Source of the DNA: a virus
Virus record (IMG/VR): IMGVR_UViG_3300037193_001461
Coordinates: 1-61,039 of that record
Direction: 5' to 3' (one strand)
Length of the DNA stretch: 61,039 bases
Shown here: positions 1,881 through 52,737 of the stretch, piece by piece
How positions within the stretch are numbered: position 1 is the first letter of the stretch
Layout of the letters: each line of letters starts with the position of its first letter
Notes under the pieces: model-generated
The model's database searches: none
What the model saw: only the letters and a program-made list of their open reading frames with translations
Told to the model about the DNA's origin: nothing
Made by a program: the position numbers and the translations under genes

Positions 1881-2726
1881 TCACGGCGTGAGGCGACTGA
1901 TCTTCTTCGCGAGGTCGTCGACCTGGGCAGCGAGTTCCAGGCCGCGCTCGTGGTCGGCGGCCAGGGCGTCGGGGACGACCGTGCCGCGCAGTTGCTTGTG
2001 GGCGACGCGCAGGGCCGCGAGCCCCTGTTCTAGCCGGACGATGGCCAGTGCCTGCTCCGGGGTGTGCTCCGTCTGCTGGTCGTCCGGTGCTTCCTCCGGC
2101 CCGTGGTCCGGCTGCTCGGGGATGTAGCGCAGGCGCAGGGCCGCCGCCTTGATGCTGGCGGCCGTGAGTTTCTCTCCAGACGTCTTCACGGCCGCGACAA
2201 CCTCGCGCAGGGCTTCCGGCCCGTGGGTGTCGAGGACCGGGGCGAGGACGCGGGCCTGGGACTCCACAGGCGCGGTGTCGAAAATTTTAGACATGACGAG
2301 CATGGCCGGGGCCGCGTCGATGAGCTGGTATGCCCGGGTGCGGTCCATCTCCCACCGGTCGGTGATGTACTCCTCGAACGTCTCGTGGGTGACCTTGTAG
2401 AGTCCGCCGTCCTCGTCGCGGATCGCGCGCAGGGCCGTGCCCGCTTCCACGACGAACCGCGCCCGCGCTGCCTTGAGCGACCGGCCGGCGGTCTCCTTGG
2501 CCTCGTCGATGGCCCGCTCGAACGCGGCCAGTTTCTCCTCGGCCGTACCGGTGACGGCGGCCGGGTCGAGCGGCTGCGGGGCGAACGGGTCGACCCCTCC
2601 AGGTACTGCCCTCGGGGGCGTTGCCGTGCCGTCGTCGGGCCTCTCCGCACCCGCGTGCCGGGAGCGCAGGACGTCGGACAGGCCGCCCGCGCGGCCGGGG
2701 GCGGGGAGCTGCTTGGCGGGGCTCAC
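1881..2726 (-). CDS. ParB-like partition partner (HTH DNA-binding)
   Basis: 281 residues from GTG 2726, which overlaps the parA stop as GTGA; the longer open frame upstream is antisense-like. After a Pro-rich N-terminus, residues ~50-130 hold a segment typical of plasmid and phage accessory DNA-binding proteins (TFEEYITDRWEMDRTRAYQLIDAA), probably a helix-turn-helix. The C-terminal ~60 residues are a leucine-rich coiled coil suited to dimerisation. No canonical ParB nuclease motif is seen. Its position straight behind a Walker-type ParA strongly suggests the centromere-binding half of a partition cassette. An alternative is a general transcription regulator. Confidence 0.7.
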   Translation of the reverse strand: MSPAKQLPAPGRAGGLSDVLRSRHAGAERPDDGTATPPRAVPGGVDPFAPQPLDPAAVTGTAEEKLAAFERAIDEAKETAGRSLKAARARFVVEAGTALRAIRDEDGGLYKVTHETFEEYITDRWEMDRTRAYQLIDAAPAMLVMSKIFDTAPVESQARVLAPVLDTHGPEALREVVAAVKTSGEKLTAASIKAAALRLRYIPEQPDHGPEEAPDDQQTEHTPEQALAIVRLEQGLAALRVAHKQLRGTVVPDALAADHERGLELAAQVDDLAKKISRLTP

Positions 2727-3517
2727 CGGTCCAGCACCTTGGCGATGGACCGGTACGCCTGGGCGTGCTCCGAGTCGGGCGCGTAGTCGACGGGGGTTCG
2801 CCCGTACCGCCACGCCTCGGTGATGATGACGGACAGCGGGATCGTGCCGAGGATCGGCAGGCCGTCGAGCGACTTCAGCTCGTCCAGGACGGAGTCCGCC
2901 AGCTTGCTCGTGGGCCGGCGCAGCAGGTTGACCACCAGGCCGTGCAGTTCCAGGGGTGTGTGGCGCAGGTCCGCGTCCACGGAGGCGATCTGCGGCAGCA
3001 GCAGCTCCAGGGCCTTGAGGCTGGAGTCCTCGGCCTGCACCGGGATGAGTACGCCGTCGGCGGCGGTCAGTGCATTGTCGGTGAGGATGTCCAGGGACGG
3101 CGGGGAGTCGATGAGTACGTGGTCGTAGACGCCGCGTGCCTGAGCAAGCAGCTTGGCCAGCCGCTGCTCGCGGGCCTTGACCTTGTCGACGTCGCGGACG
3201 GCCATGAACATCTCGAACGCGTTGGGGATGACGTCGATGCGGCCGGCCGGCGCGGAGTGTGTGGTGATCAGGTCGGCGAGCGGACCGGTGAACTCCCCGA
3301 GCAGTGCCCGGTAGAGGTTGGCGGCCCCGAGCCCGGAGGGTGCCTGCCCGACCTTCAGTCCGTCGGTGAGGTGGCCTTGCGGGTCCAAGTCGACGAGGAG
3401 GACGTTACGGCCGGCTTCGGCGAGTGCCCCGGCCTCTCCGATGGTCGTCGCGGTCTTGCCGACGCCACCTTTTTGGTTCGCGATAGCGGTGATGCGCGTG
3501 GTGGTGGATGCATCCAT
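2723..3517 (-). CDS. parA: ParA-family partition ATPase
   Basis: 264 residues. Deviant Walker A KGGVGKT at residues 16-22, followed by LVDLDPQGHLT and the Walker B-type LIDSPPS. Length and motifs match small ParA/Soj ATPases lacking an N-terminal HTH (type Ib-like). Such proteins form ATP-dependent gradients on the nucleoid that segregate plasmids. The partner gene overlaps its 3' end. The 105-bp gap to the divergent gene at 3623 may hold the promoter and a parS-like site, but I see no clear iteron there. Presence in a phage with an integrase suggests a plasmid-like or stabilised lysogenic state. Confidence 0.9.
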   Translation of the reverse strand: MDASTTTRITAIANQKGGVGKTATTIGEAGALAEAGRNVLLVDLDPQGHLTDGLKVGQAPSGLGAANLYRALLGEFTGPLADLITTHSAPAGRIDVIPNAFEMFMAVRDVDKVKAREQRLAKLLAQARGVYDHVLIDSPPSLDILTDNALTAADGVLIPVQAEDSSLKALELLLPQIASVDADLRHTPLELHGLVVNLLRRPTSKLADSVLDELKSLDGLPILGTIPLSVIITEAWRYGRTPVDYAPDSEHAQAYRSIAKVLDR

Positions 3518-36866: not shown

Positions 36867-37967
36867 GTGACGATCACGACCAAGGAACGCGGAACGCTCA
36901 CCATTGACGACCCGGCGCTGCGCGCGCTGTCGCGGCTGCGCGAGCGGCTGGGCACCGTCGCGCCCCGCGCCCCGCGCACCCGGCGGCTCGGGCCGCGCGT
37001 CCACCGGCTCGATCTGCTGCACGAGTTGTGCGAGGCGCAGACGTTCGAGCATGTGGTGGGCTGGCTGTCCTCCGAGCGGTTCACCTCCGACGGCACCCGG
37101 CGCGAGTACGCCGACGACGTCCGCCACTGGGCGCGCGCCGGCCGGGAGCTGGTCGGCACGGAGCCGTGGTACCTCGGGGCGATCACGTCCGACGTCATCC
37201 CGGCCTGGCGCGCGTGGACGGATGACATCGGCCTCGGGCCCCGCCGGGTCAACCGGCTGGCGTCGTCGCTGACTTCGCTGATCGAGTACACGAAGTTCCG
37301 CACCCGGCTGGAGATCATCAACCCCGTCACGAAGTACGACCGGCCGGTGATCGACCAGCACGACGAGACGGCGATGACGCCGATTCTGGAGGTGGAGGAG
37401 TTCCAGGCTGTTGTCGAGCAGGCGGCGACGCCCCGACAGGCGTTCGTCCCGGTGCTGATCTACACCCTGGCAGGCCGGGTGTCGGAGTGCTGCGCGGCCG
37501 GGCTGCACCACATGGACTCCACCGGCGGCGAGTGCAAGCTGGACCTCACCCGCAAGGGCGGCAAGGGCCGGAAGTTCACCCTGCCGCCGCTGCTGTGCGA
37601 GCTGGGCGCCCGGTGCTGGGAGGGGCGCACCTCGGGACCGCTGTTCATGGACGACGATGACCGGCCGATGGACCGGCACGCGGTGGACCGGCTGCTGAAC
37701 CGCCTCGGCCGCGCGGCCGGGGTGCTCCCGGGCCGGGACCTCACCCCGCACGTGCTGCGCGCGAGCAAGCTGACCCACATGTACGACGAGGGCCAGAAGT
37801 CGGAGAACGGGAAGCCGACGCCGGACGACATCCGCCGGTTCGCCGACCACAGCCACATCTCCACGACGATGCGGTACATCCGGCGCCGGGACGACGAGGC
37901 GCTCAAGCGCGAGCACGCGGCGGCGGCCGTGAAGGTGTACGAGGGCCTCGTGGACCGGTTCCTGTGA
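36867..37967 (+). CDS. int: tyrosine recombinase (integrase)
   Basis: 366 residues from GTG 36867. N-terminal ~60-150: SAM-like core-binding domain (FEHVVGWLSSERFTSDGTRREY). Catalytic residues visible: R204 in LAGRVSE, Lys in KGGKGRK (~233-236), H295 and R298 in HVLR, H328 in ADHSH, Y337 in TTMRYIRR. The set is complete, so the enzyme should be active in integrating phage DNA at an att site. The start-associated 10-mer GACCAAGGAA lies inside the first codons (36878-36887), so an internal non-ATG start cannot be excluded. No attP was found next to the gene. Confidence 0.92.
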   Translation: MTITTKERGTLTIDDPALRALSRLRERLGTVAPRAPRTRRLGPRVHRLDLLHELCEAQTFEHVVGWLSSERFTSDGTRREYADDVRHWARAGRELVGTEPWYLGAITSDVIPAWRAWTDDIGLGPRRVNRLASSLTSLIEYTKFRTRLEIINPVTKYDRPVIDQHDETAMTPILEVEEFQAVVEQAATPRQAFVPVLIYTLAGRVSECCAAGLHHMDSTGGECKLDLTRKGGKGRKFTLPPLLCELGARCWEGRTSGPLFMDDDDRPMDRHAVDRLLNRLGRAAGVLPGRDLTPHVLRASKLTHMYDEGQKSENGKPTPDDIRRFADHSHISTTMRYIRRRDDEALKREHAAAAVKVYEGLVDRFL

Positions 37968-45920: not shown

Positions 45921-47003
45921 CTACAGCGCCAGCCACATCGGGTTGGCCAGGGACCAGCGCACCGTGCGCTCGATGGACCGCTCCAGCGGCACAGGAGGCT
46001 TCCACCCGAGGGACGCGATCTTCGAGCCGTCGAGGGCGTAGCGCAGGTCGTGGCCGGGTCGCGAAGCGTGGAAGGAGACCGGCTCGATCAAGTCGTCCAC
46101 GACGTCGGAGTCCAGGCCCATGACGCGTCCGATCATGTGCACCAGCTCGATGTTGTTCACCTCGCGTTCGCCGACGATGTTGTACCGCTCCGGACGGGTG
46201 AACACGCCGTCGCGGTACCGGGCCGGGCCCATGTCGACCCGGATCGTCTCGCCACCGAGGGTGCGCACCTCGGGCTCATCCTCGGTGTACCGCCGCGTCA
46301 GCCACAGCCAGGCGTCCGCGAGGTTGCGCGCGTGCAGGTAGAACCGGCTGCCGGGAGTGCCGTTGGGCGCGGTGTGCACGGTGATGGACCGACCGTCGCG
46401 CAGACTCTTGATGATCTTCGGCAGGAACTTCTCCCCGTCCTGCATCTCGCCCACGATGTTCATCGTGTTCGTCAGGACGACCGGCACGCCGTAGGTCCGC
46501 CAGTAGCTGATGGCGATGGCTTCCTGCGCCGCCTTGCTCGCTGAGTACGGGTTCGACGGTACGGCCGGTTCCCACTCGGTGTGCTTGTACTCGCCGTACG
46601 CCGGGCCGTACACCTCGTCCGTGGACATCTGGAGGAACACCCGGGGCCCGATAGCCCGCGCCACCTCCAGGACGTTGAGCATCAGGGAGACGTTGTTCTC
46701 CACGAACGTCACCGGGTGGGAAATGCTGCGGTCCACGTGGCTCTCGCTCGCCACGTTCATGATGACGTCGCAGTCCTCGAACTGGTGCAGCGTCAGCGGG
46801 TCGGCCGGCGCCCGCATGTCCCAGTGCACCGTGTGCACCCGGTCCTGCCATTCGGTGTCGCACACTGCCGAGGCGATGCGGGCGGGCAAGCCTTTGTGGT
46901 GGAAGGACACAGGGCAGGTGATTTGCCAGTCCGTGTTGGTCAGCAGATGGCGCAGAACGTGGCTTCCGACGAACCCCGCCGCACCCGTGAGCAGAACGTG
47001 CAT
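45921..47003 (-). CDS. RmlB-like NAD-dependent sugar-nucleotide epimerase/dehydratase
   Basis: 360 residues. Extended SDR: NAD-binding TGAAGFVGSHVLRH at ~6-19, active-site loop MSTDEVYGP, and YSASK (the Tyr/Lys pair) about 25 residues later. STDEVYG is typical of dTDP-glucose 4,6-dehydratases; NVASESHVDRSI is a second RmlB signature. Full length, no truncation. It should convert an NDP-hexose to a 4-keto-6-deoxy sugar. With the glycosyltransferase at 6072 it suggests sugar decoration of virions, DNA or host wall. Own promoter TCGGCG-17-TACCAT upstream. Confidence 0.85.
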   Translation of the reverse strand: MHVLLTGAAGFVGSHVLRHLLTNTDWQITCPVSFHHKGLPARIASAVCDTEWQDRVHTVHWDMRAPADPLTLHQFEDCDVIMNVASESHVDRSISHPVTFVENNVSLMLNVLEVARAIGPRVFLQMSTDEVYGPAYGEYKHTEWEPAVPSNPYSASKAAQEAIAISYWRTYGVPVVLTNTMNIVGEMQDGEKFLPKIIKSLRDGRSITVHTAPNGTPGSRFYLHARNLADAWLWLTRRYTEDEPEVRTLGGETIRVDMGPARYRDGVFTRPERYNIVGEREVNNIELVHMIGRVMGLDSDVVDDLIEPVSFHASRPGHDLRYALDGSKIASLGWKPPVPLERSIERTVRWSLANPMWLAL

Positions 47004-47136: not shown

Positions 47137-47772
47137 CTACTCTCCGGGCTCCTCGGCCTCGCCGACGACTTCGCCCTCCAGAACCCGCAGATGCGCGCCG
47201 GCCGCTTCCAGCATCCGCTGCCGCTGCGCGGGCTCCATCTCGATCGCGTTCGCGCCGGCCAGGATCGCCTCCACGACTACGTTCGTCTCCTCGTCCACCC
47301 GGCGGTCCAGAGCGATCGTCAGCCTCTCCGACGCGTCCGTACCGTCGATCTTCGCCTGCCGCTCCTCGATCTTCATCAGCCTGTCCACGGCCGCGAGCAC
47401 TGGGGCGTCATCGCGCAGCGGCTGGCCGTCCTCGTCGCGGACGATCTGCCCCGCGTGCAGCACGTAGTGCGGCCGGGCGAGGACCGCGTGGACCTGCCGG
47501 CGCAGCCCGTCCAGCCGCATCCGCGCGGCCTCGCGGTACTCCTCCAAGCTCATGCTCAGCTCTTTGTTGGCCTGCTTCAGCGCGCGGGAGACGTCCACGC
47601 ACGCGGCAGCGGCCGACGGGTTGCCGTCTGAGTCCACGTAGTGCGGGGCCATCTGCTCGGCGACCTGCTGCCAGGACAGGCCACGGTTCTTCAGCTCGAT
47701 CGCCCGTGCGCGCCGCTGCGCCACCACGGCCCGGTGGCTCGGCTGGTGGCTGGGCGGGTCACCCTTCGCCAT
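47137..47772 (-). CDS. putative terminase small subunit
   Basis: 211 residues. N-terminal HTH-like domain (RARAIELKNRGLSWQQVAEQMAP...AAACVDVSRALKQAN), a central helical stretch (LEEYREAARMRLDGLRRQVHAVL) and KIEERQAKIDGTDASERL, a pattern I associate with actinophage small terminases (RxxRLxGLDAP-like). It would bind pac/cos DNA and recruit TerL. It is 3.6 kb upstream of terL with lysin, regulator and epimerase genes in between. Confidence 0.65.
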   Translation of the reverse strand: MAKGDPPSHQPSHRAVVAQRRARAIELKNRGLSWQQVAEQMAPHYVDSDGNPSAAAACVDVSRALKQANKELSMSLEEYREAARMRLDGLRRQVHAVLARPHYVLHAGQIVRDEDGQPLRDDAPVLAAVDRLMKIEERQAKIDGTDASERLTIALDRRVDEETNVVVEAILAGANAIEMEPAQRQRMLEAAGAHLRVLEGEVVGEAEEPGE

Positions 47773-47811
47773 GGCTCTTAGCCTCCCTAACGGTTAACGG
47801 ATCTCCACCCG

Positions 47812-48414
47812 TCACCAGCCCCGTCGGGGGTGCCGCCCCGGAGGCCCGATGAGGTCGAACAGGTCCGCGCGCTGCTGGGGGTCGTCCAGGAAGACCCCGG
47901 TGTACGACGCGGTGACCATCACCGCCCCCGGCTTGCGTGCCCCACGGTGGGCGAGGCAGCCGTGTTCGGAGCGGATCACGCACGCGGCGCCGAGGACGTC
48001 GAGGTGCTTGTCCAGCGCGTCGGTCACCTGCTTGGTGAGCTGCTCCTGGGTTTGCAACCTCCGCGCGTACACGTCCAGGACGCGGGGCAGCTTGGACAGC
48101 CCCGCCACCCTCGCGCCGGGGGTGGGCAGGTAGGCGATGTCCGCCGTGCCGGTGAACGGCAGCAAGTGGTGTTCGCAGACGGACGTGAACTCCACGCCAG
48201 TCACCGCGATGGGTTGACCGCCCCGGTCCACCTCGAACGTCCGCTCCAGCAGCGCGCCGGCGTCCTGCGCGTAGCCACCGGTGAACTCCTCCAGCGCCCG
48301 TAGCATCCGCGTCGGCGTCCCTGCCAGGGCCTCGGAGTCGGGGTCCAGACCCCGGGCGGTGAACCAGGCACGCAGTCCAGTGACGAACAGGTCTTCCACG
48401 GTCGTCTCGCTCAT
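47812..48414 (-). CDS. folE: GTP cyclohydrolase I
   Basis: 200 residues. Zinc-site Cys and His in SVCEHHLLPF, substrate loop GLSKLPRVLDVYARRLQTQEQLT, and the second zinc Cys in EHGCLAHRG. All conserved FolE type IA residues appear present. It converts GTP to 7,8-dihydroneopterin triphosphate, the first step towards preQ0. Last gene of the six-gene overlapped set; its start overlaps the queE stop (ATGA). Downstream gene is terS after a short gap. Confidence 0.95.
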   Translation of the reverse strand: MSETTVEDLFVTGLRAWFTARGLDPDSEALAGTPTRMLRALEEFTGGYAQDAGALLERTFEVDRGGQPIAVTGVEFTSVCEHHLLPFTGTADIAYLPTPGARVAGLSKLPRVLDVYARRLQTQEQLTKQVTDALDKHLDVLGAACVIRSEHGCLAHRGARKPGAVMVTASYTGVFLDDPQQRADLFDLIGPPGRHPRRGW

Positions 48415-49124
48415 CGGCCTCGCTCATCTCCCCACGCGTGCACGTGAAGCCGCGTGGTCACGTTGAATCCGGCCGCCACCGCCGGGTCGGCGATGACACC
48501 GAGCCGGCCGGCCAGGGTGGCGGAGTCGGTGCCCTCCGGCATGACCCACACCCGGCGGGCCGGGATGCCGTGCGCGGCAGCCAGCTCGGCCGCCTCGGTG
48601 ACGTCGGCTGCGTCACGGCAGACGAACTTGAACACCGCCTTCCCCGTGGCCATGAGGGACTTGAGCGCCACCGGGTTGATCCGGCGGTCCTCGGCAACCC
48701 CGGAGTGCGCCAGCTTCGGCGAGACGGTGAAACGGGTCATCAGCTTCGCCGTCTCCTCCGTCGGCTCCACCGTTCCGTTCGTCTCGACCTCCGCCCTCAC
48801 ACCGGCGCCGGTCAACCCGCGCAGCACCGCGTTCCAGCCGGCGTAGCGTTGCTGAAGCAGGGGCTCGCCGCCCGAGATGATGACGAACCGGCACCCGGTG
48901 GCCAGCAGCCGCTCGATGATGTCGTCGGCGTCCATGCGACGCATTTCGGCGCGCAAGTCGAACCGGCCGGCGTCCCAGGTGAACGCGGAATCACACCACG
49001 AGCATGTGAGGTTGCAGCCCCCGAGGCGCAGGAAGGCGCACCGCTGCCCCAGCGTCGGGCCCTCGCCGGACACCGTGGGGCCGAAGATCTCGGAGACGAC
49101 CAGTGACGGCCGCTCCCCCGTCAC
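48411..49124 (-). CDS. queE: 7-carboxy-7-deazaguanine synthase (radical SAM)
   Basis: 237 residues from GTG 49124, overlapping queD's stop (GTGA). Radical SAM cluster CNLTCSWC (C-x3-C-x2-C) with FGPTVSGEGPTLGQRCAFLRLGGC before it, the QueE N-terminal signature. SAM-binding GGEPLLQ and ETNGTVEP follow. It turns carboxytetrahydropterin into 7-carboxy-7-deazaguanine. Complete length. Confidence 0.95.
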   Translation of the reverse strand: MTGERPSLVVSEIFGPTVSGEGPTLGQRCAFLRLGGCNLTCSWCDSAFTWDAGRFDLRAEMRRMDADDIIERLLATGCRFVIISGGEPLLQQRYAGWNAVLRGLTGAGVRAEVETNGTVEPTEETAKLMTRFTVSPKLAHSGVAEDRRINPVALKSLMATGKAVFKFVCRDAADVTEAAELAAAHGIPARRVWVMPEGTDSATLAGRLGVIADPAVAAGFNVTTRLHVHAWGDERGR

Positions 49125-49558
49125 CCCGGCTCCCCGGTCCACGACGCCTCGTTGACGGCCGTCTCCCGTACGTCCACGCTCACCACCCGGGCGCCCTTGG
49201 CGTGCGGCACCTGAGTGAGGATCCCCGAGGCGATGGACGCCAGCAGCTCCGCCGTCGCCTCCACGGTCGGCCAGGAGTCCTCGAACTCGAAGACCTTGCA
49301 GCCCATGGAGCACAGGACGGCCCGCAACGGGTCATCGGTACCGAGCATCGCGCCGTGGTCCAGGTGGGTGTCGATCCACTCGCGCACGGCACGCTTGAAC
49401 GCGCCGAACTCCACGACGATCCCCGCCTCGTCGAGTGCGGGAGCCGCCACGGTGATTTCCACCCACCACGAGTGCCCGTGCAGGTTGAAGCACTTGCCCC
49501 CGAGTTCGGGCAGCCGGTGGGCCGTCTCGAAGTTGTGCTTCACCGTCACGCTGTTCAT
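49121..49558 (-). CDS. queD: 6-carboxytetrahydropterin synthase
   Basis: 145 residues. Zinc His in FETAHRLPE and NLHGHSW, catalytic Cys in GGKCFNLHGH, and VVEFGAFKRAV, all QueD hallmarks. It converts dihydroneopterin triphosphate to 6-carboxytetrahydropterin. The Asp-His pair DHGAML..D is also in place. ATGA overlap with queC upstream. Confidence 0.95.
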   Translation of the reverse strand: MNSVTVKHNFETAHRLPELGGKCFNLHGHSWWVEITVAAPALDEAGIVVEFGAFKRAVREWIDTHLDHGAMLGTDDPLRAVLCSMGCKVFEFEDSWPTVEATAELLASIASGILTQVPHAKGARVVSVDVRETAVNEASWTGEPG

Positions 49559-50229
49559 GCCGCGTACTCCGTCGGGTCGGTGATCCCGGCGTCAGCGAAG
49601 GCTTCCTTGCGTTCGGTGCACGTCCCGCAGGTACCGCAATGCACCTCGCCGCCCTTGTAGCAGGACCAGGACATGTGCACTGGAGCACCGATGGTCTCCG
49701 CGTAGGCCGCGATCTCTGTCTTCGTCCGGTCGACGAACGGGGTGACGATCTGCGGGGTGTGCATGCCCTTGAGCGCGACGGCCGCCAGCTCGCGCAGCGC
49801 GTCCACGAACTCCGGTCGGCAGTCCGGATAGATGGCGTGGTCGCCTGCGTGGACGCCGAGGCCGATCAGCTCCGCGCCCCGGGCCGAGGCCACCCCGATG
49901 GCGATGGACGCCATGACGGCGTTGCGGTTCGGTACCACCGTGGCCTTCATCGACTCGGCCGCGTAGTGTCCGTCCGGCACGTCCACGTCGGGGTCGGTGA
50001 GGGAGGATCCGGGCAGCAGCGGGGCGATGGACGACAGGTCCACGACGTGGTGCTCCGCGCCCAGGTACCCGGCGATACCGGCCGCCGCCTCCAGCTCGCG
50101 CCGCCGGTGACGCTGGCCGTAGTTGAACGACAGCAGGAGCAGGTCGTAGCCCTTGCGGGCATAGTGGGCGGCGAGTGTCGTTGAGTCCATGCCCCCGGAG
50201 AACGAGAGCACGGCGAGGGGTTTGATCAC
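49555..50229 (-). CDS. queC: 7-cyano-7-deazaguanine (preQ0) synthase
   Basis: 224 residues from GTG 50229, overlapping the upstream stop (GTGA). PP-loop SFSGGMDSTTLA at ~9-20; NRNAVMASIAIGVA; C-terminal zinc site SCYKGG..HCGTCGTCTERK with four Cys. It uses ATP and ammonia to make preQ0. No QueF, ArcS or Gat-type domain is fused, so preQ0 itself is the expected base. Confidence 0.95.
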   Translation of the reverse strand: MIKPLAVLSFSGGMDSTTLAAHYARKGYDLLLLSFNYGQRHRRRELEAAAGIAGYLGAEHHVVDLSSIAPLLPGSSLTDPDVDVPDGHYAAESMKATVVPNRNAVMASIAIGVASARGAELIGLGVHAGDHAIYPDCRPEFVDALRELAAVALKGMHTPQIVTPFVDRTKTEIAAYAETIGAPVHMSWSCYKGGEVHCGTCGTCTERKEAFADAGITDPTEYAA

Positions 50230-51134
50230 GGAGTGTCCTTCCGTAGGTCGGCGGTGATGGCCTGAGCCGCCGGGATGAAGTTGCTGATGGTCGTGTCGGC
50301 GAGGAACAGGCAGGTGCCCCGGGAGGTCCAGCCGGGCGGCGGGGTGACGTCGTGACGGTGCTGGAGCCACTGCCCGAGCCGGTGGTAGGCGAGGGCCGGG
50401 ACGCCGCGCATCAAGCGGTCCTCGTAGCGGAACCGCTCGGGAGTCTTGTCGGCCTTCAGCCCGAACCCTGAACAGGCAACCGCGTCCGGATCAACTCCGT
50501 ATGTGCGGATGAGCGCAGCACGTCTGCGGGCGCCGGCGCGGTCTCCCACCACTACCTGCGCGATCCGACCCGCCCTCTCGTCAAAGAGCTTAAGCAGACC
50601 GAACTTGGCGCCATGGCTCCAGGTGGAGGAGTCCACCGAGTAGAACGGCAACGCGGCCATGGCTGTGGAGTTGGTCTGTCCGAAGCCGTGGAAGACCGTG
50701 CCGTGCTCATTGCCGATGCGGAAGCACTTGACCAGCCAGCGCATGACCTCGCCGTACATCCGGGTGTACGGCACCATGCCGCCGAGAGCGACGTACCGGT
50801 ACTGCGCGCACAGCTTCTCCAGCCGGTCCCACGGGGAACCTGTGTGGAAGACCGGTAGGACGTTCAGTCCCATGTCCTCCAGCGCGAGCGTGTTGCGCTG
50901 CGTCGCGTCCGGGTCACCGATGACATCGAGCGTCGCCGCTGTGGTAATGAGGTGCTGCCAGTCCTTCAGCCAGGCCGCGTAGTCGGCGAGGCGGATGGTC
51001 GTGCCGAGGGTGGCGGCGGAGAACGCGCCCGAGTCGGCGAACACTTCCACGGGCAATCCGCCGGCTGCGTCCGCGATGGCCTGGAGATCTTTGCCGCGCC
51101 CGTAGTGGAACGACATCAGAAAGCGGAACGTCAT
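50226..51134 (-). CDS. dpdA: DpdA-like DNA guanine transglycosylase, copy 2
   Basis: 302 residues from ATG 51134 (ATGA overlap with the first copy). TGT-fold features: VEVFADSGAFSAATLG with the substrate Asp, TLDVIGDPDATQRN, YVALGGMVPYTRM, FHGFGQT, and YSVDSSTW, whose Asp is a likely nucleophile. Highly similar to the 51131 product over the first ~210 residues, more different at the C-terminus. It should swap guanine for preQ0 in phage DNA. Different C-termini suggest different DNA or base preference. Confidence 0.85.
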   Translation of the reverse strand: MTFRFLMSFHYGRGKDLQAIADAAGGLPVEVFADSGAFSAATLGTTIRLADYAAWLKDWQHLITTAATLDVIGDPDATQRNTLALEDMGLNVLPVFHTGSPWDRLEKLCAQYRYVALGGMVPYTRMYGEVMRWLVKCFRIGNEHGTVFHGFGQTNSTAMAALPFYSVDSSTWSHGAKFGLLKLFDERAGRIAQVVVGDRAGARRRAALIRTYGVDPDAVACSGFGLKADKTPERFRYEDRLMRGVPALAYHRLGQWLQHRHDVTPPPGWTSRGTCLFLADTTISNFIPAAQAITADLRKDTP

Positions 51135-52054
51135 GCGACACCCCCGAGGGCACTGTCTCGCTCTGCCCGGAGCGCCCGCGCGGCCTGCTTGAACCGAGCC
51201 GCAAGGGCGTCCGCAAGGAACAGCACCGTGCCCGGGTGTCTCCAGCCCGTCGGCGCGGGGACTTGGTGGCGGCGGGACAGCCACTCGCCGAACCGGTGGA
51301 AGGCGACGGCTGGTGCCCCGCGCATCATTTGTGCTTCTACCGCGTATTGCTCCGGGGCCCGTCGCGTGAATTGGGCGAACCCGGGTCGGCCGACCAGCTC
51401 CGGGTCGGCTCCGTGGGAGCGCAGCAGCCTGGAGTACTTCCGGGCCGGCGCGGGCTGGGAGACCTGGACGAGCCGGGCCCTGCCTTCGTCCCACAGTGGG
51501 ATCTGACCGAAGCGCGAGCCTGCTCCCCAGGCGGAGGAGTCCACGCTGTAGAACGGCAGAGCCGCGACGGTGGCGAACCGCGTCTGGCCGAAGCCGTGGA
51601 AGACCGTGCCGTACTCCTTACCGATGCGGAACGCCTTGACCAACCACCGCAGCACCTCGTCGGGGTATTTGGAGTACGGAACCATGCCGCCGAGAGCGAG
51701 GTACGGATACGTCTTGCACAGCCGCTCCAGCACCGGCCACGGGGTGCCGACGTGGAAGGTGGGCAGGACCCGGAGACCGGCGCCCAGCAGGGCCTCGGTG
51801 TTGCGGTGTGTGGCGTCGGCGTCACCGATGACGTCCAGGGTCGCCGCCGTGGTGATGACCGGAGACCACTCCTCCAGCCAGGCCGCGTAGTCCTTCAGGT
51901 TCACCGTGGCGCCGGTGGTGGCAACGGAGAAGGCGCCCGAGTCGGCAAAGATCTCCACCGGCCCGCCGTAAAGCGTACGCAGTTCCGCCGTCAGTTCCGC
52001 CAGGTCCCGGCTGCGAAAGAAGGCGTAGGAGAACAGGCAGCGCAGCGGTGTCAC
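51131..52054 (-). CDS. dpdA: DpdA-like DNA guanine transglycosylase, copy 1
   Basis: 307 residues from GTG 52054, overlapping the ParB-like stop (GTGA). Shares with copy 2 FADSGAFSVAT, DYAAWLEEW, TTAATLDVIGDADAT, LALGGMVPYSKY, WLVKAFRIG, VFHGFGQT and YSVDSSAW. Tandem paralogs in one operon are unusual. Shorter than bacterial DpdA and lacking its C-terminal extensions; it resembles the phage type. Product predicted: 2'-deoxy-preQ0 in DNA. Confidence 0.85.
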   Translation of the reverse strand: MTPLRCLFSYAFFRSRDLAELTAELRTLYGGPVEIFADSGAFSVATTGATVNLKDYAAWLEEWSPVITTAATLDVIGDADATHRNTEALLGAGLRVLPTFHVGTPWPVLERLCKTYPYLALGGMVPYSKYPDEVLRWLVKAFRIGKEYGTVFHGFGQTRFATVAALPFYSVDSSAWGAGSRFGQIPLWDEGRARLVQVSQPAPARKYSRLLRSHGADPELVGRPGFAQFTRRAPEQYAVEAQMMRGAPAVAFHRFGEWLSRRHQVPAPTGWRHPGTVLFLADALAARFKQAARALRAERDSALGGVA

Positions 52055-52737
52055 TCCCCAGCCCTCACCCGCTGCACGAGGAACATAAAACGGACGGAAT
52101 CGTCGCCGGGGTCCTCGCAGTCCTTCGTCACGTCGTAGAAGTCGTCACGGACGTTCGGCGGGACCCGGACCCGGATGACCGGCCACAGGTCGGTCTCCAG
52201 CGGCTCGCCGTACTCCTCCGCGAGGTCGTCCAGAGACGGCGGAGGTTCGACGGCTGAGGGCAACTCGGTGAACAGCTCCGCCTCGCTCGGCCCGTACCCC
52301 GTACCCACGAAGTCGTCGTCCAGCGTGGCGAGCAGCGCGTCCAGGGCGTCGCGGTCGTAGTCGCCCTCGTCGGCCGCCTTGTTGTCGACCAGGTTGATAC
52401 GTGTCGCGGTCGCGTCGTCGCACTCGACGAGGTGCGCGAGCGCCGTCGGGTCCTCGCGGTCCACCTCGGTGCAGATCTGGCACGGCCGGTCGTTGGCCAG
52501 CTCCCAGTCCTGGCAGCCGGCTCGCTCGTCCTCCTCGTGGCGCAGGAGCGCGAGGTAGGTGTGATTGCCGGCGAGGATCGTCAGCGTCTCGTCCTGTTGC
52601 CGTACCACCAGCGGCTTGTACTGACCATTGGCCCGAAGGGAGTCCAGGACCAATTCGACGTTGCCCCGGCGCGCGTTGCCCTCGAACGGGGTCAGGTCTT
52701 CCAGCGGAACCCGCTCGGTCCCGACGGTCGTGGTCAT
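52051..52737 (-). CDS. ParB-like nuclease-domain protein heading the modification operon
   Basis: 228 residues from ATG 52737. ParB N-terminal motifs: VPLEDLTPFEGNARRGN, SLRANGQYKPLVV, ILAGNHTYLALL (the GNH motif). Middle has two Cys (CQDW...CQIC) and INLVDNKAADEGDYD; C-terminus is acidic. Bacterial Dpd systems pair DpdA with DpdB, a ParB-like ATPase; this gene, coupled by a 4-nt overlap to dpdA, may do the same job. Alternatively a methylase-type ParB regulator. Confidence 0.78.
   Translation of the reverse strand: MTTTVGTERVPLEDLTPFEGNARRGNVELVLDSLRANGQYKPLVVRQQDETLTILAGNHTYLALLRHEEDERAGCQDWELANDRPCQICTEVDREDPTALAHLVECDDATATRINLVDNKAADEGDYDRDALDALLATLDDDFVGTGYGPSEAELFTELPSAVEPPPSLDDLAEEYGEPLETDLWPVIRVRVPPNVRDDFYDVTKDCEDPGDDSVRFMFLVQRVRAGE

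What the first reader, a model, noticed from the sequence alone, without database searches (positions are those of the whole stretch)
47812..52737. Six-gene coupled 7-deazaguanine DNA-modification operon with two tandem DpdA paralogs and a ParB-like partner
FolE, QueE, QueD and QueC, all with intact active-site motifs, give a full GTP-to-preQ0 route. Directly upstream are two DpdA-like transglycosylases that share most core motifs but differ at their C-termini, and a ParB-domain protein. Every junction from the ParB-like gene to folE is a 4-nt ATGA/GTGA overlap. DpdA enzymes insert preQ0 or derivatives into DNA in phages and bacteria, and bacterial DpdA works with the ParB-like DpdB. Two DpdAs may divide DNA sites, strands or bases. 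No QueF, ArcS or DpdC is seen, so deoxy-preQ0 is the predicted mark. It would protect against host restriction.
Basis: partly seen in the sequence, partly recalled or inferred. Interest (0 to 1): 0.88.

Follow-up and report, generated by a model that had tools for sequence, protein, structure and literature searches.

The report
preQ0 DNA-marking operon with doubled DpdA
A Streptomyces phage (or phage-plasmid) carries genes predicted to make the modified base preQ0 and swap it for guanine in its own DNA, a known phage disguise, but with two intact copies of the swapping enzyme instead of one, a doubling that has arisen several times in related phages and apparently has not been discussed in print.

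Summary
On the minus strand, 52737-47812, seven genes (not six) lie head to tail with 4-nt overlaps at every junction: parB-like, dpdA-1, dpdA-2, queC, queD, queE, folE. Active-site residues of the four preQ0 enzymes are intact. The two DpdAs are 54% identical, both under purifying selection, and both keep every catalytic residue invariant in the family. The operon is of the Rosebush actinophage type (parB-dpdA-queC-queD-queE-folE), whose best-studied member has about 28% of its G as deoxy-preQ0, so deoxy-preQ0 is the likeliest mark; no QueF, DpdC-like or glutamine-amidotransferase gene is in the record. The second dpdA is unusual but not unique: Microbacterium phages Megan and Nicole72 and 14 other operons of 82 sampled have two, in at least five separate parts of the DpdA tree, as do prophages in Streptomyces and Kutzneria. 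The ParB-like protein has the ParB/sulfiredoxin fold and lies next to dpdA in 68 of 82 operons, but does not match bacterial DpdB models; a collinear Streptomyces phage-plasmid, pS1D4-14.2, keeps it while lacking the whole dpdA-folE block. How the two DpdAs divide the work (site choice, heterodimer, dosage) is unresolved.

The parts
52051..52737 (-). ParB-like protein (228 aa), first gene of the operon; ParB_N/sulfiredoxin-type nucleotide-binding fold
   Evidence: phrog_723 E 1.4e-39; family profile matches Spo0J/ParB structures, E 3.7e-11; AF2 model pLDDT 92 matches ParB CTPase 6sdk, E 2.6e-6
51131..52054 (-). DpdA-1 (307 aa, GTG start), predicted DNA preQ0 transglycosylase
   Evidence: phrog_887 E 9.8e-42; tblastn to Rosebush-group DpdA E 2e-19 and Bippervirus DpdA 5e-43; D38, D74, H153, D172 invariant in 106 DpdAs; AF2 model pLDDT 94 with these at barrel strand ends
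50226..51134 (-). DpdA-2 (302 aa, ATG start), paralog of DpdA-1, 54% identical
   Evidence: phrog_887 E 1.9e-48; tblastn to Rosebush-group DpdA E 2e-23; 54% to DpdA-1; dN/dS about 0.19 against its ortholog
49555..50229 (-). QueC, 7-cyano-7-deazaguanine (preQ0) synthase, 224 aa, no fused amidotransferase domain
   Evidence: PF06508 E 1.6e-60, TIGR00364 above cut-off; residues aligned with E. coli QueC
49121..49558 (-). QueD, 6-carboxytetrahydropterin synthase
   Evidence: PF01242 E 1.2e-25, phrog_2389 1.6e-34
48411..49124 (-). QueE, 7-carboxy-7-deazaguanine synthase (radical SAM)
   Evidence: phrog_2076 E 2.2e-61, TIGR03365 7.5e-32; CxxxCxxC and GGEP
47812..48414 (-). FolE, GTP cyclohydrolase I
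   Evidence: PF01227 E 3e-54; Zn ligands aligned with E. coli FolE
47137..47772 (-). Downstream flank of the cassette: 'RNaseE'-annotated phage protein (phrog_645, weak terminase-small-subunit signal); not part of the pathway
   Evidence: phrog_645 E 2.4e-14; retained in the sister phage-plasmid that lacks dpdA-folE
47800..52258 (.). Stretch present here but replaced by about 1 kb with two unrelated small ORFs in the collinear phage-plasmid pS1D4-14.2: dpdA-1 to folE as an exchangeable cassette (plus the divergent 3' third of parB)
   Evidence: blastn of window against L132: matches stop at window 47799 and resume at 52259

Best explanation
This is a self-contained 7-deazaguanine DNA-modification operon of a temperate Streptomyces phage or phage-plasmid. 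FolE, QueD, QueE and QueC turn GTP into preQ0. Two catalytically competent DpdA paralogs then exchange guanine in the phage's own DNA for preQ0 through a (beta/alpha)8-barrel active site with three invariant aspartates (D38, D74, D172) and a histidine (H153). The resulting deoxy-preQ0 shields the DNA from host restriction. The ParB-like protein probably loads on DNA and helps DpdA reach its targets. I infer, more weakly (about 0.45), that the second DpdA was kept because the two enzymes differ in target choice: identity is highest around the active site and lowest in the N-terminal 30 residues and the C-terminal third. SHOWN by sequence: gene content, order, intact active sites, purifying selection on both copies, repeated origin of two-copy operons. 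INFERRED from tested relatives: preQ0 insertion and restriction protection. INFERRED only: the role of ParB and the division of labour.
For: Complete pathway with intact residues. Both DpdAs are homologous to DpdAs of Rosebush-type phages, which carry dPreQ0 (PMC6884629), and of Seurat-type phages related to CAjan, whose dpdA deletion abolishes dPreQ0. D38, D74, H153 and D172 are invariant in 106 of 106 sequences, both members of every pair included, and sit at barrel strand ends in a pLDDT-94 model. The family profile finds 7ui4, a DNA-guanine transglycosylase, at E 0.0099 over its catalytic segment. dN/dS is about 0.18 (dpdA-1) and 0.19 (dpdA-2), like queC. Identity between the copies: 69% around strand ends, 51% elsewhere in the barrel, 41% in the C-terminal part. 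Two-copy operons occur in 17 of 82 loci in at least five starred parts of the tree. No QueF, DUF6884, GATase_6 or DUF5591 in the record, nor QueF/DUF6884 in four related contigs.
Against: No chemistry was measured. Homology to classical TGT could not be shown directly (hhalign to E. coli Tgt, probability 1.4%), and Foldseek found only generic TIM barrels. PADLOC's bacterial DpdA model matches DpdA-1 only at E 0.065. The record is linear and shorter than its relatives (92.6 and 98.8 kb), so a missing gene cannot be excluded. ParB is kept without dpdA in pS1D4-14.2. Nothing in the sequence shows what the two copies do differently.
Confidence: 0.72

Rival explanations
1. The two DpdAs form an obligate heterodimer, as eukaryotic TGT (QTRT1/QTRT2) does, and act as one enzyme with one specificity.
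For: TGT enzymes act as dimers (established knowledge; PMC6884629 refers to it). The two genes are always close and usually overlap or abut, which suits equal dosage.
Against: In the eukaryotic case one subunit has lost catalysis; here all catalytic residues remain in both members of essentially every pair (only L049_2nd departs, at H101 and S173). Most relatives manage with one DpdA (65 of 82 loci). In L091 the two dpdA genes are separated by parB and queC.
Confidence: 0.2
2. Plain dosage: two copies only raise the amount of enzyme so that replicating phage DNA is modified in time.
For: Duplications recur and some pairs are less diverged (L026 and L064, 69% identical). Both copies keep all catalytic residues.
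Against: In the window clade the two copies have stayed distinct through speciation: each is closer to its ortholog in L007 (80% and 84%) than to its partner (54%), with 63 fixed differences, 21 of them charge-changing. In L049 and L091 the second copy is remote (32%), not a recent duplicate.
Confidence: 0.2
3. The two DpdAs use different bases, e.g. one inserts preQ0 and the other the intermediate CDG or a host-derived 7-deazaguanine.
For: Some phage DpdAs seem promiscuous for pathway intermediates (nt-1, PMC6884629). DpdAs in queC-lacking operons mostly have A or G where preQ0-pathway DpdAs have D78.
Against: Both window copies keep D78 and the same LDVIGD, GGMVPY and YSVDSS motifs. queC is present and intact.
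Confidence: 0.1
4. The ParB-like protein is not a modification partner but has its own role (replication, partition, nuclease, DNA binding), and only travels next to dpdA.
For: pS1D4-14.2 keeps it (68% identical) while lacking dpdA-folE. Relatives occur in many phages. No match to PADLOC DpdB.
Against: A ParB-type gene lies within 350 nt of dpdA in 68 of 82 loci; parB is doubled in several operons, and L091 has dpdA-parB-queC-dpdA-parB. The same ParB domain type is fused to DNA methyltransferases (phrog_498, PADLOC MTase_II).
Confidence: 0.35
5. The operon feeds queuosine-like modification of host tRNA rather than DNA.
For: Database names for these proteins are 'queuine tRNA-ribosyltransferase'.
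Against: Related operons yield modified phage DNA and deletion of dpdA removes it (PMC6884629). No queF is in the record.
Confidence: 0.04

Closest known systems
Rosebush-type mycobacteriophage preQ0 operon (Mycobacterium phages Allegro/Rosebush, Saguaro, Quesadilla, CRB2)
   Same: ParB-like (or HTH-annotated) gene, DpdA, QueC, QueD, QueE, FolE in the same order, mostly with short overlaps, upstream of terminase genes; Rosebush DNA carries dPreQ0 at ~28% of G
   Different: One DpdA, about 30-32% identical to DpdA-1 in the full alignment; C-terminal GPHLHLA-type motifs, up to three, in place of a single GTxLFLA motif
Microbacterium phages Megan (NC_073368) and Nicole72 (OR159674), cluster EC
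   Same: ParB-like, two adjacent DpdA genes, QueC, QueD, QueE, FolE, then terminase; in Megan both annotated as queuine tRNA-ribosyltransferase
   Different: Their pair is a separate duplication (46-48% to each other, about 28% to DpdA-1). Their QueC gene is longer and two small genes are inserted
IMG/VR contig 3300049139_000233 (92.6 kb; L007) and prophages of Streptomyces sp. Ag109_O5-1, S. diastatochromogenes ATCC 12309 and Kutzneria viridogrisea DSM 43850
   Same: Same clade of DpdA and two dpdA genes in a preQ0 operon
   Different: Outside L007 the copies are combined differently: the first copy in the Streptomyces-type operons belongs to another branch; in Kutzneria parB lies between the two dpdA genes
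Streptomyces sp. S1D4-14 linear phage-plasmid pS1D4-14.2 (NZ_CP041606)
   Same: Collinear with the window at about 80% DNA identity over about half of the compared length; ParB-like gene, epimerase, P4-type primase, ParA and tyrosine recombinase present
   Different: Lacks dpdA-1 to folE entirely; two small unrelated ORFs are there instead
Bacterial Dpd restriction-modification islands (dpdA-K)
   Same: DpdA-type transglycosylase with a ParB-superfamily companion and preQ0 supply
   Different: No DUF6884/DpdC or PADLOC DpdB match here; DpdA is shorter and only weakly similar to the bacterial model

Membership tests
Phage preQ0 DNA-modification clusters (group 2 of Hutinet et al. 2019) | A DpdA homolog | tested here: met
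   Two; phrog_887 E 9.8e-42 and 1.9e-48; tblastn to Rosebush- and Seurat-type DpdAs
Phage preQ0 DNA-modification clusters (group 2 of Hutinet et al. 2019) | FolE, QueD, QueE and QueC all present with intact active sites | tested here: met
Phage preQ0 DNA-modification clusters (group 2 of Hutinet et al. 2019) | No amidotransferase or QueF | tested here: met
   PF14489, PF13522 and PF17884 give no match in the record, with positive controls; the record may be incomplete
Phage preQ0 DNA-modification clusters (group 2 of Hutinet et al. 2019) | dPreQ0 in virion DNA | not testable with these tools
   Needs LC-MS/MS
Phage DpdA family | Invariant catalytic Asp/His residues | tested here: met
   D38, D74, H153, D172 in 106 of 106, both window copies included
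Phage DpdA family | Single copy per operon (customary rather than defining) | tested here: not met
   Two here and in 16 further loci of 82
TGT superfamily | Detectable profile similarity to TGT or a solved DNA-guanine transglycosylase | tested here: inconclusive
   7ui4 at E 0.0099; hhalign with E. coli Tgt 1.4%; Foldseek only generic TIM barrels. PMC6884629 describes phage DpdAs as TGT homologs
Bacterial DpdB | Match to DpdB/DndB-type models | tested here: not met
   No PADLOC DpdB match for P0001 or any of 29 relatives; Pfam shows ParB_N only, no DndB
ParB/sulfiredoxin superfamily | ParB_N fold | tested here: met
   ParB_N in 14 of 29 relatives, best E 7.2e-10; profile to 1vz0 E 3.7e-11; Foldseek to 6sdk E 2.6e-6
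Bacterial Dpd R-M island | dpdC and restriction genes dpdD-K | tested here: inconclusive
   DUF6884 (DpdC) absent; the operon holds no further gene; dpdD-K were not each searched for across the record

The most novel reading that the evidence does not exclude
Two-enzyme base exchange: in several actinophage lineages dpdA was independently doubled and the copies specialised for different DNA targets (sequence contexts or strands), possibly guided by ParB-type proteins, so that the phage marks its genome in two contexts and escapes a wider set of host restriction systems. The dpdA-que-folE block behaves as an exchangeable cassette of Streptomyces phage-plasmids.
Probability: 0.35. Interest if true: 0.65.

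Novelty: new variant of a known kind. Interest (0 to 1): 0.45.

Why it matters
DpdA target choice is poorly understood, and DpdAs that insert the same base give different restriction patterns (Rosebush and CAjan, PMC6884629). Naturally paired paralogs in one operon, arisen repeatedly, are a ready comparison for finding what sets DpdA specificity. Cultured phages (Megan, Nicole72) and lysogens (Streptomyces, Kutzneria) with such pairs exist, so the question can be tested directly. The sister phage-plasmid without the cassette is a natural control for what the modification does.

Tried and rejected
Single ancient duplication behind all pairs: rejected; pairs fall in at least five separate starred parts of the tree, and the window's pair is closer to itself and its clade than to Megan's. 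Inactive-partner model: no loss of catalytic residues found (a first table was out of register and was replaced). One copy decaying: dN/dS about 0.18-0.19 for both. Fold comparison of DpdA-1 with the PDB: only generic TIM barrels, no help. hhalign with E. coli Tgt: no significant match. D78/queC correlation: strong in raw counts but essentially one clade, so not significant on the tree. Promoter/terminator scan: nothing above shuffles. Close DNA match to the operon in the phage collection: none; only short matches elsewhere in the region. Literature on doubled dpdA: no hit in the open library for six phrasings; Cui 2023 and Gedara 2023 (NAR) are not held, so mention there cannot be excluded.
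Full report
WHAT IS THERE. The window is a whole IMG/VR virus record of 61,039 bases, linear, 69% G+C. On the minus strand seven genes follow each other with 4-nt overlaps: parB-like 52737-52051, dpdA-1 52054-51131, dpdA-2 51134-50226, queC 50229-49555, queD 49558-49121, queE 49124-48411, folE 48414-47812. The finding's title says six; its coordinates span seven. Pfam, PHROGs and NCBIfam identify the four pathway genes. Alignment with E. coli FolE, QueC, QueD and QueE shows the metal, nucleophile and cluster-binding residues in place.

THE TWO DpdAs. They share 54% identity: 61% in the first 190 residues and 40% after, and 69% around the barrel strand ends against 51% in the rest of the barrel. 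Both keep D38, D74, H153 and D172, which are invariant in 106 non-redundant DpdAs. An AlphaFold2 model of DpdA-1 (mean pLDDT 94.1) has the strand/helix order of a (beta/alpha)8 barrel, in which invariant residues S9, D38, D74, H101, G122, H153 and D172 lie at or just after the ends of strands 1 to 7. Against the orthologs in a related contig, dN/dS is about 0.18 (dpdA-1) and 0.19 (dpdA-2), similar to queC. So neither copy is decaying and neither looks like an inactive subunit.

MECHANISM FROM RELATIVES. Both DpdAs match DpdAs of Rosebush-type mycobacteriophages and of Seurat/9g-type coliphages. In PMC6884629 Rosebush DNA has dPreQ0 at ~28% of G, CAjan ~32%, and a CAjan dpdA deletion loses both the base and the restriction resistance. 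Those phages have DpdA plus FolE, QueD, QueE and QueC and no amidotransferase, as here: QueF (PF14489), DUF6884 (the DpdC domain according to PMC11888242), GATase_6 and DUF5591 find nothing in the record, with positive controls. QueF and DUF6884 are also missing from four related contigs. Deoxy-preQ0 is therefore the likeliest mark, by analogy. Two limits: phages 7-11 and MED16 carry dADG although no responsible gene was identified, and this record may be a fragment, since relatives are 92.6 and 98.8 kb.

HOW COMMON IS THE DOUBLING. Among about 240 phage records with a DpdA match, only Microbacterium phages Megan and Nicole72 have two places; their operon is ParB, DpdA, DpdA, QueC, two small genes, QueD, QueE, FolE, with one more small gene between the DpdAs in Nicole72. 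A scan of viral contigs gave 80 best loci, and a second added more. In a non-redundant set of 82 operons with enough upstream sequence, 17 (the window included) have two dpdA genes. This sample is chosen by similarity to the query, so 17/82 is not a frequency in nature. In a maximum-likelihood tree the pairs fall in several starred clades: the window clade, Megan/Nicole72, L037/L114, L059/L062/L064, and L079; in L049 and L091 the second copy is a distant DpdA. Doubling therefore happened repeatedly. Within the window clade copies have been reshuffled: the window's first copy groups with the second copies of L022-L024, whose first copies form another branch. Prophages in named chromosomes (Streptomyces sp. 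Ag109_O5-1, S. diastatochromogenes ATCC 12309, Kutzneria viridogrisea DSM 43850) carry two-dpdA operons. I found no paper in the held library that mentions two dpdA genes; the Nicole72 announcement mentions only the preQ0 pathway. Two key NAR papers were not held.

THE ParB-LIKE PROTEIN. Its family profile matches Spo0J/ParB structures (E 3.7e-11), and its model (pLDDT 92) matches ParB CTPases and sulfiredoxin. A ParB-type gene lies within 350 nt of dpdA in 68 of 82 operons. It is itself doubled in some (L021, L059, L063, L064, L067, L070), and L091 reads dpdA-parB-queC-dpdA-parB. The same domain is found fused to DNA methyltransferases (phrog_498; PADLOC MTase_II, 23 of 29 members). This fits a DNA-loading helper for modification enzymes. 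It does not match PADLOC's DpdB models, so I do not file it as DpdB, although PMC6392294 suggested that for phage CRB2.

THE ELEMENT AND ITS EMPTY-SITE RELATIVE. The window has portal, capsid, tape-measure and terminase genes, an endolysin, a tyrosine integrase (36867-37967), ParA (2723-3517) and primase-like genes. The linear Streptomyces plasmid pS1D4-14.2 is collinear at about 80% DNA identity over about half of the compared length, and its gene list is that of a phage-plasmid. There, blastn matches stop at window 47,799 and resume at 52,259: the dpdA-1 to folE block is missing, two small unrelated ORFs (181 and 89 aa) take its place, and the ParB-like gene is kept at 68% identity. The modification genes thus behave as an exchangeable cassette, and ParB can persist without them. 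This is the strongest evidence against ParB being a dedicated DpdA partner in this lineage.

VERDICT. The system is a member of the known phage preQ0 clusters, Rosebush-type, in a variant with two DpdAs. The variant exists in public records but appears undiscussed. Its function (different targets, heterodimer or dosage) is open, and testable with cultured phages. I rate it a new variant of a known kind, interest 0.45.

Noticed in passing
L003, L045, L054, L059, L062-L065, L070, L093, L095 (residue equivalent to D78 of DpdA-1): In operons that lack queC, 15 of 17 DpdAs have A or G where 68 of 76 DpdAs from queC-containing operons have D. It fits a switch to the QueC substrate CDG, but it is essentially one clade and not significant on the tree.
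   Followed up: partly
C-termini of actinophage DpdAs; window 51131-52054 (GTVLFLA) and 50226-51134 (GTCLFLA): A short motif of the form G[TP]x[VLI][YHF]LA, single in the window's DpdAs and repeated 3-4 times in Rosebush-type DpdAs, L024, L027 and L029; in 28 of 107 DpdAs against 1.4 expected in shuffles. Function unknown.
   Followed up: partly
window 1-61039 versus NZ_CP041606 (pS1D4-14.2): The window is collinear with a linear Streptomyces phage-plasmid, so the virus probably can persist as a plasmid; both also encode a tyrosine recombinase.
   Followed up: partly
L021, L059, L063, L064, L067, L070, L091: ParB-like genes are doubled beside dpdA, sometimes with a single dpdA; L091 has dpdA-parB-queC-dpdA-parB.
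   Followed up: no
L012 (Mycobacterium phage Funsized), 1296-1694: A QueF-like gene sits between parB and dpdA in an otherwise Rosebush-type operon, suggesting a different mark such as preQ1.
   Followed up: no
window 45921-47003: NAD-dependent epimerase/dehydratase (phrog_540, E 2.8e-77) near the operon, also kept in the sister phage-plasmid; role in the phage unclear.
   Followed up: no
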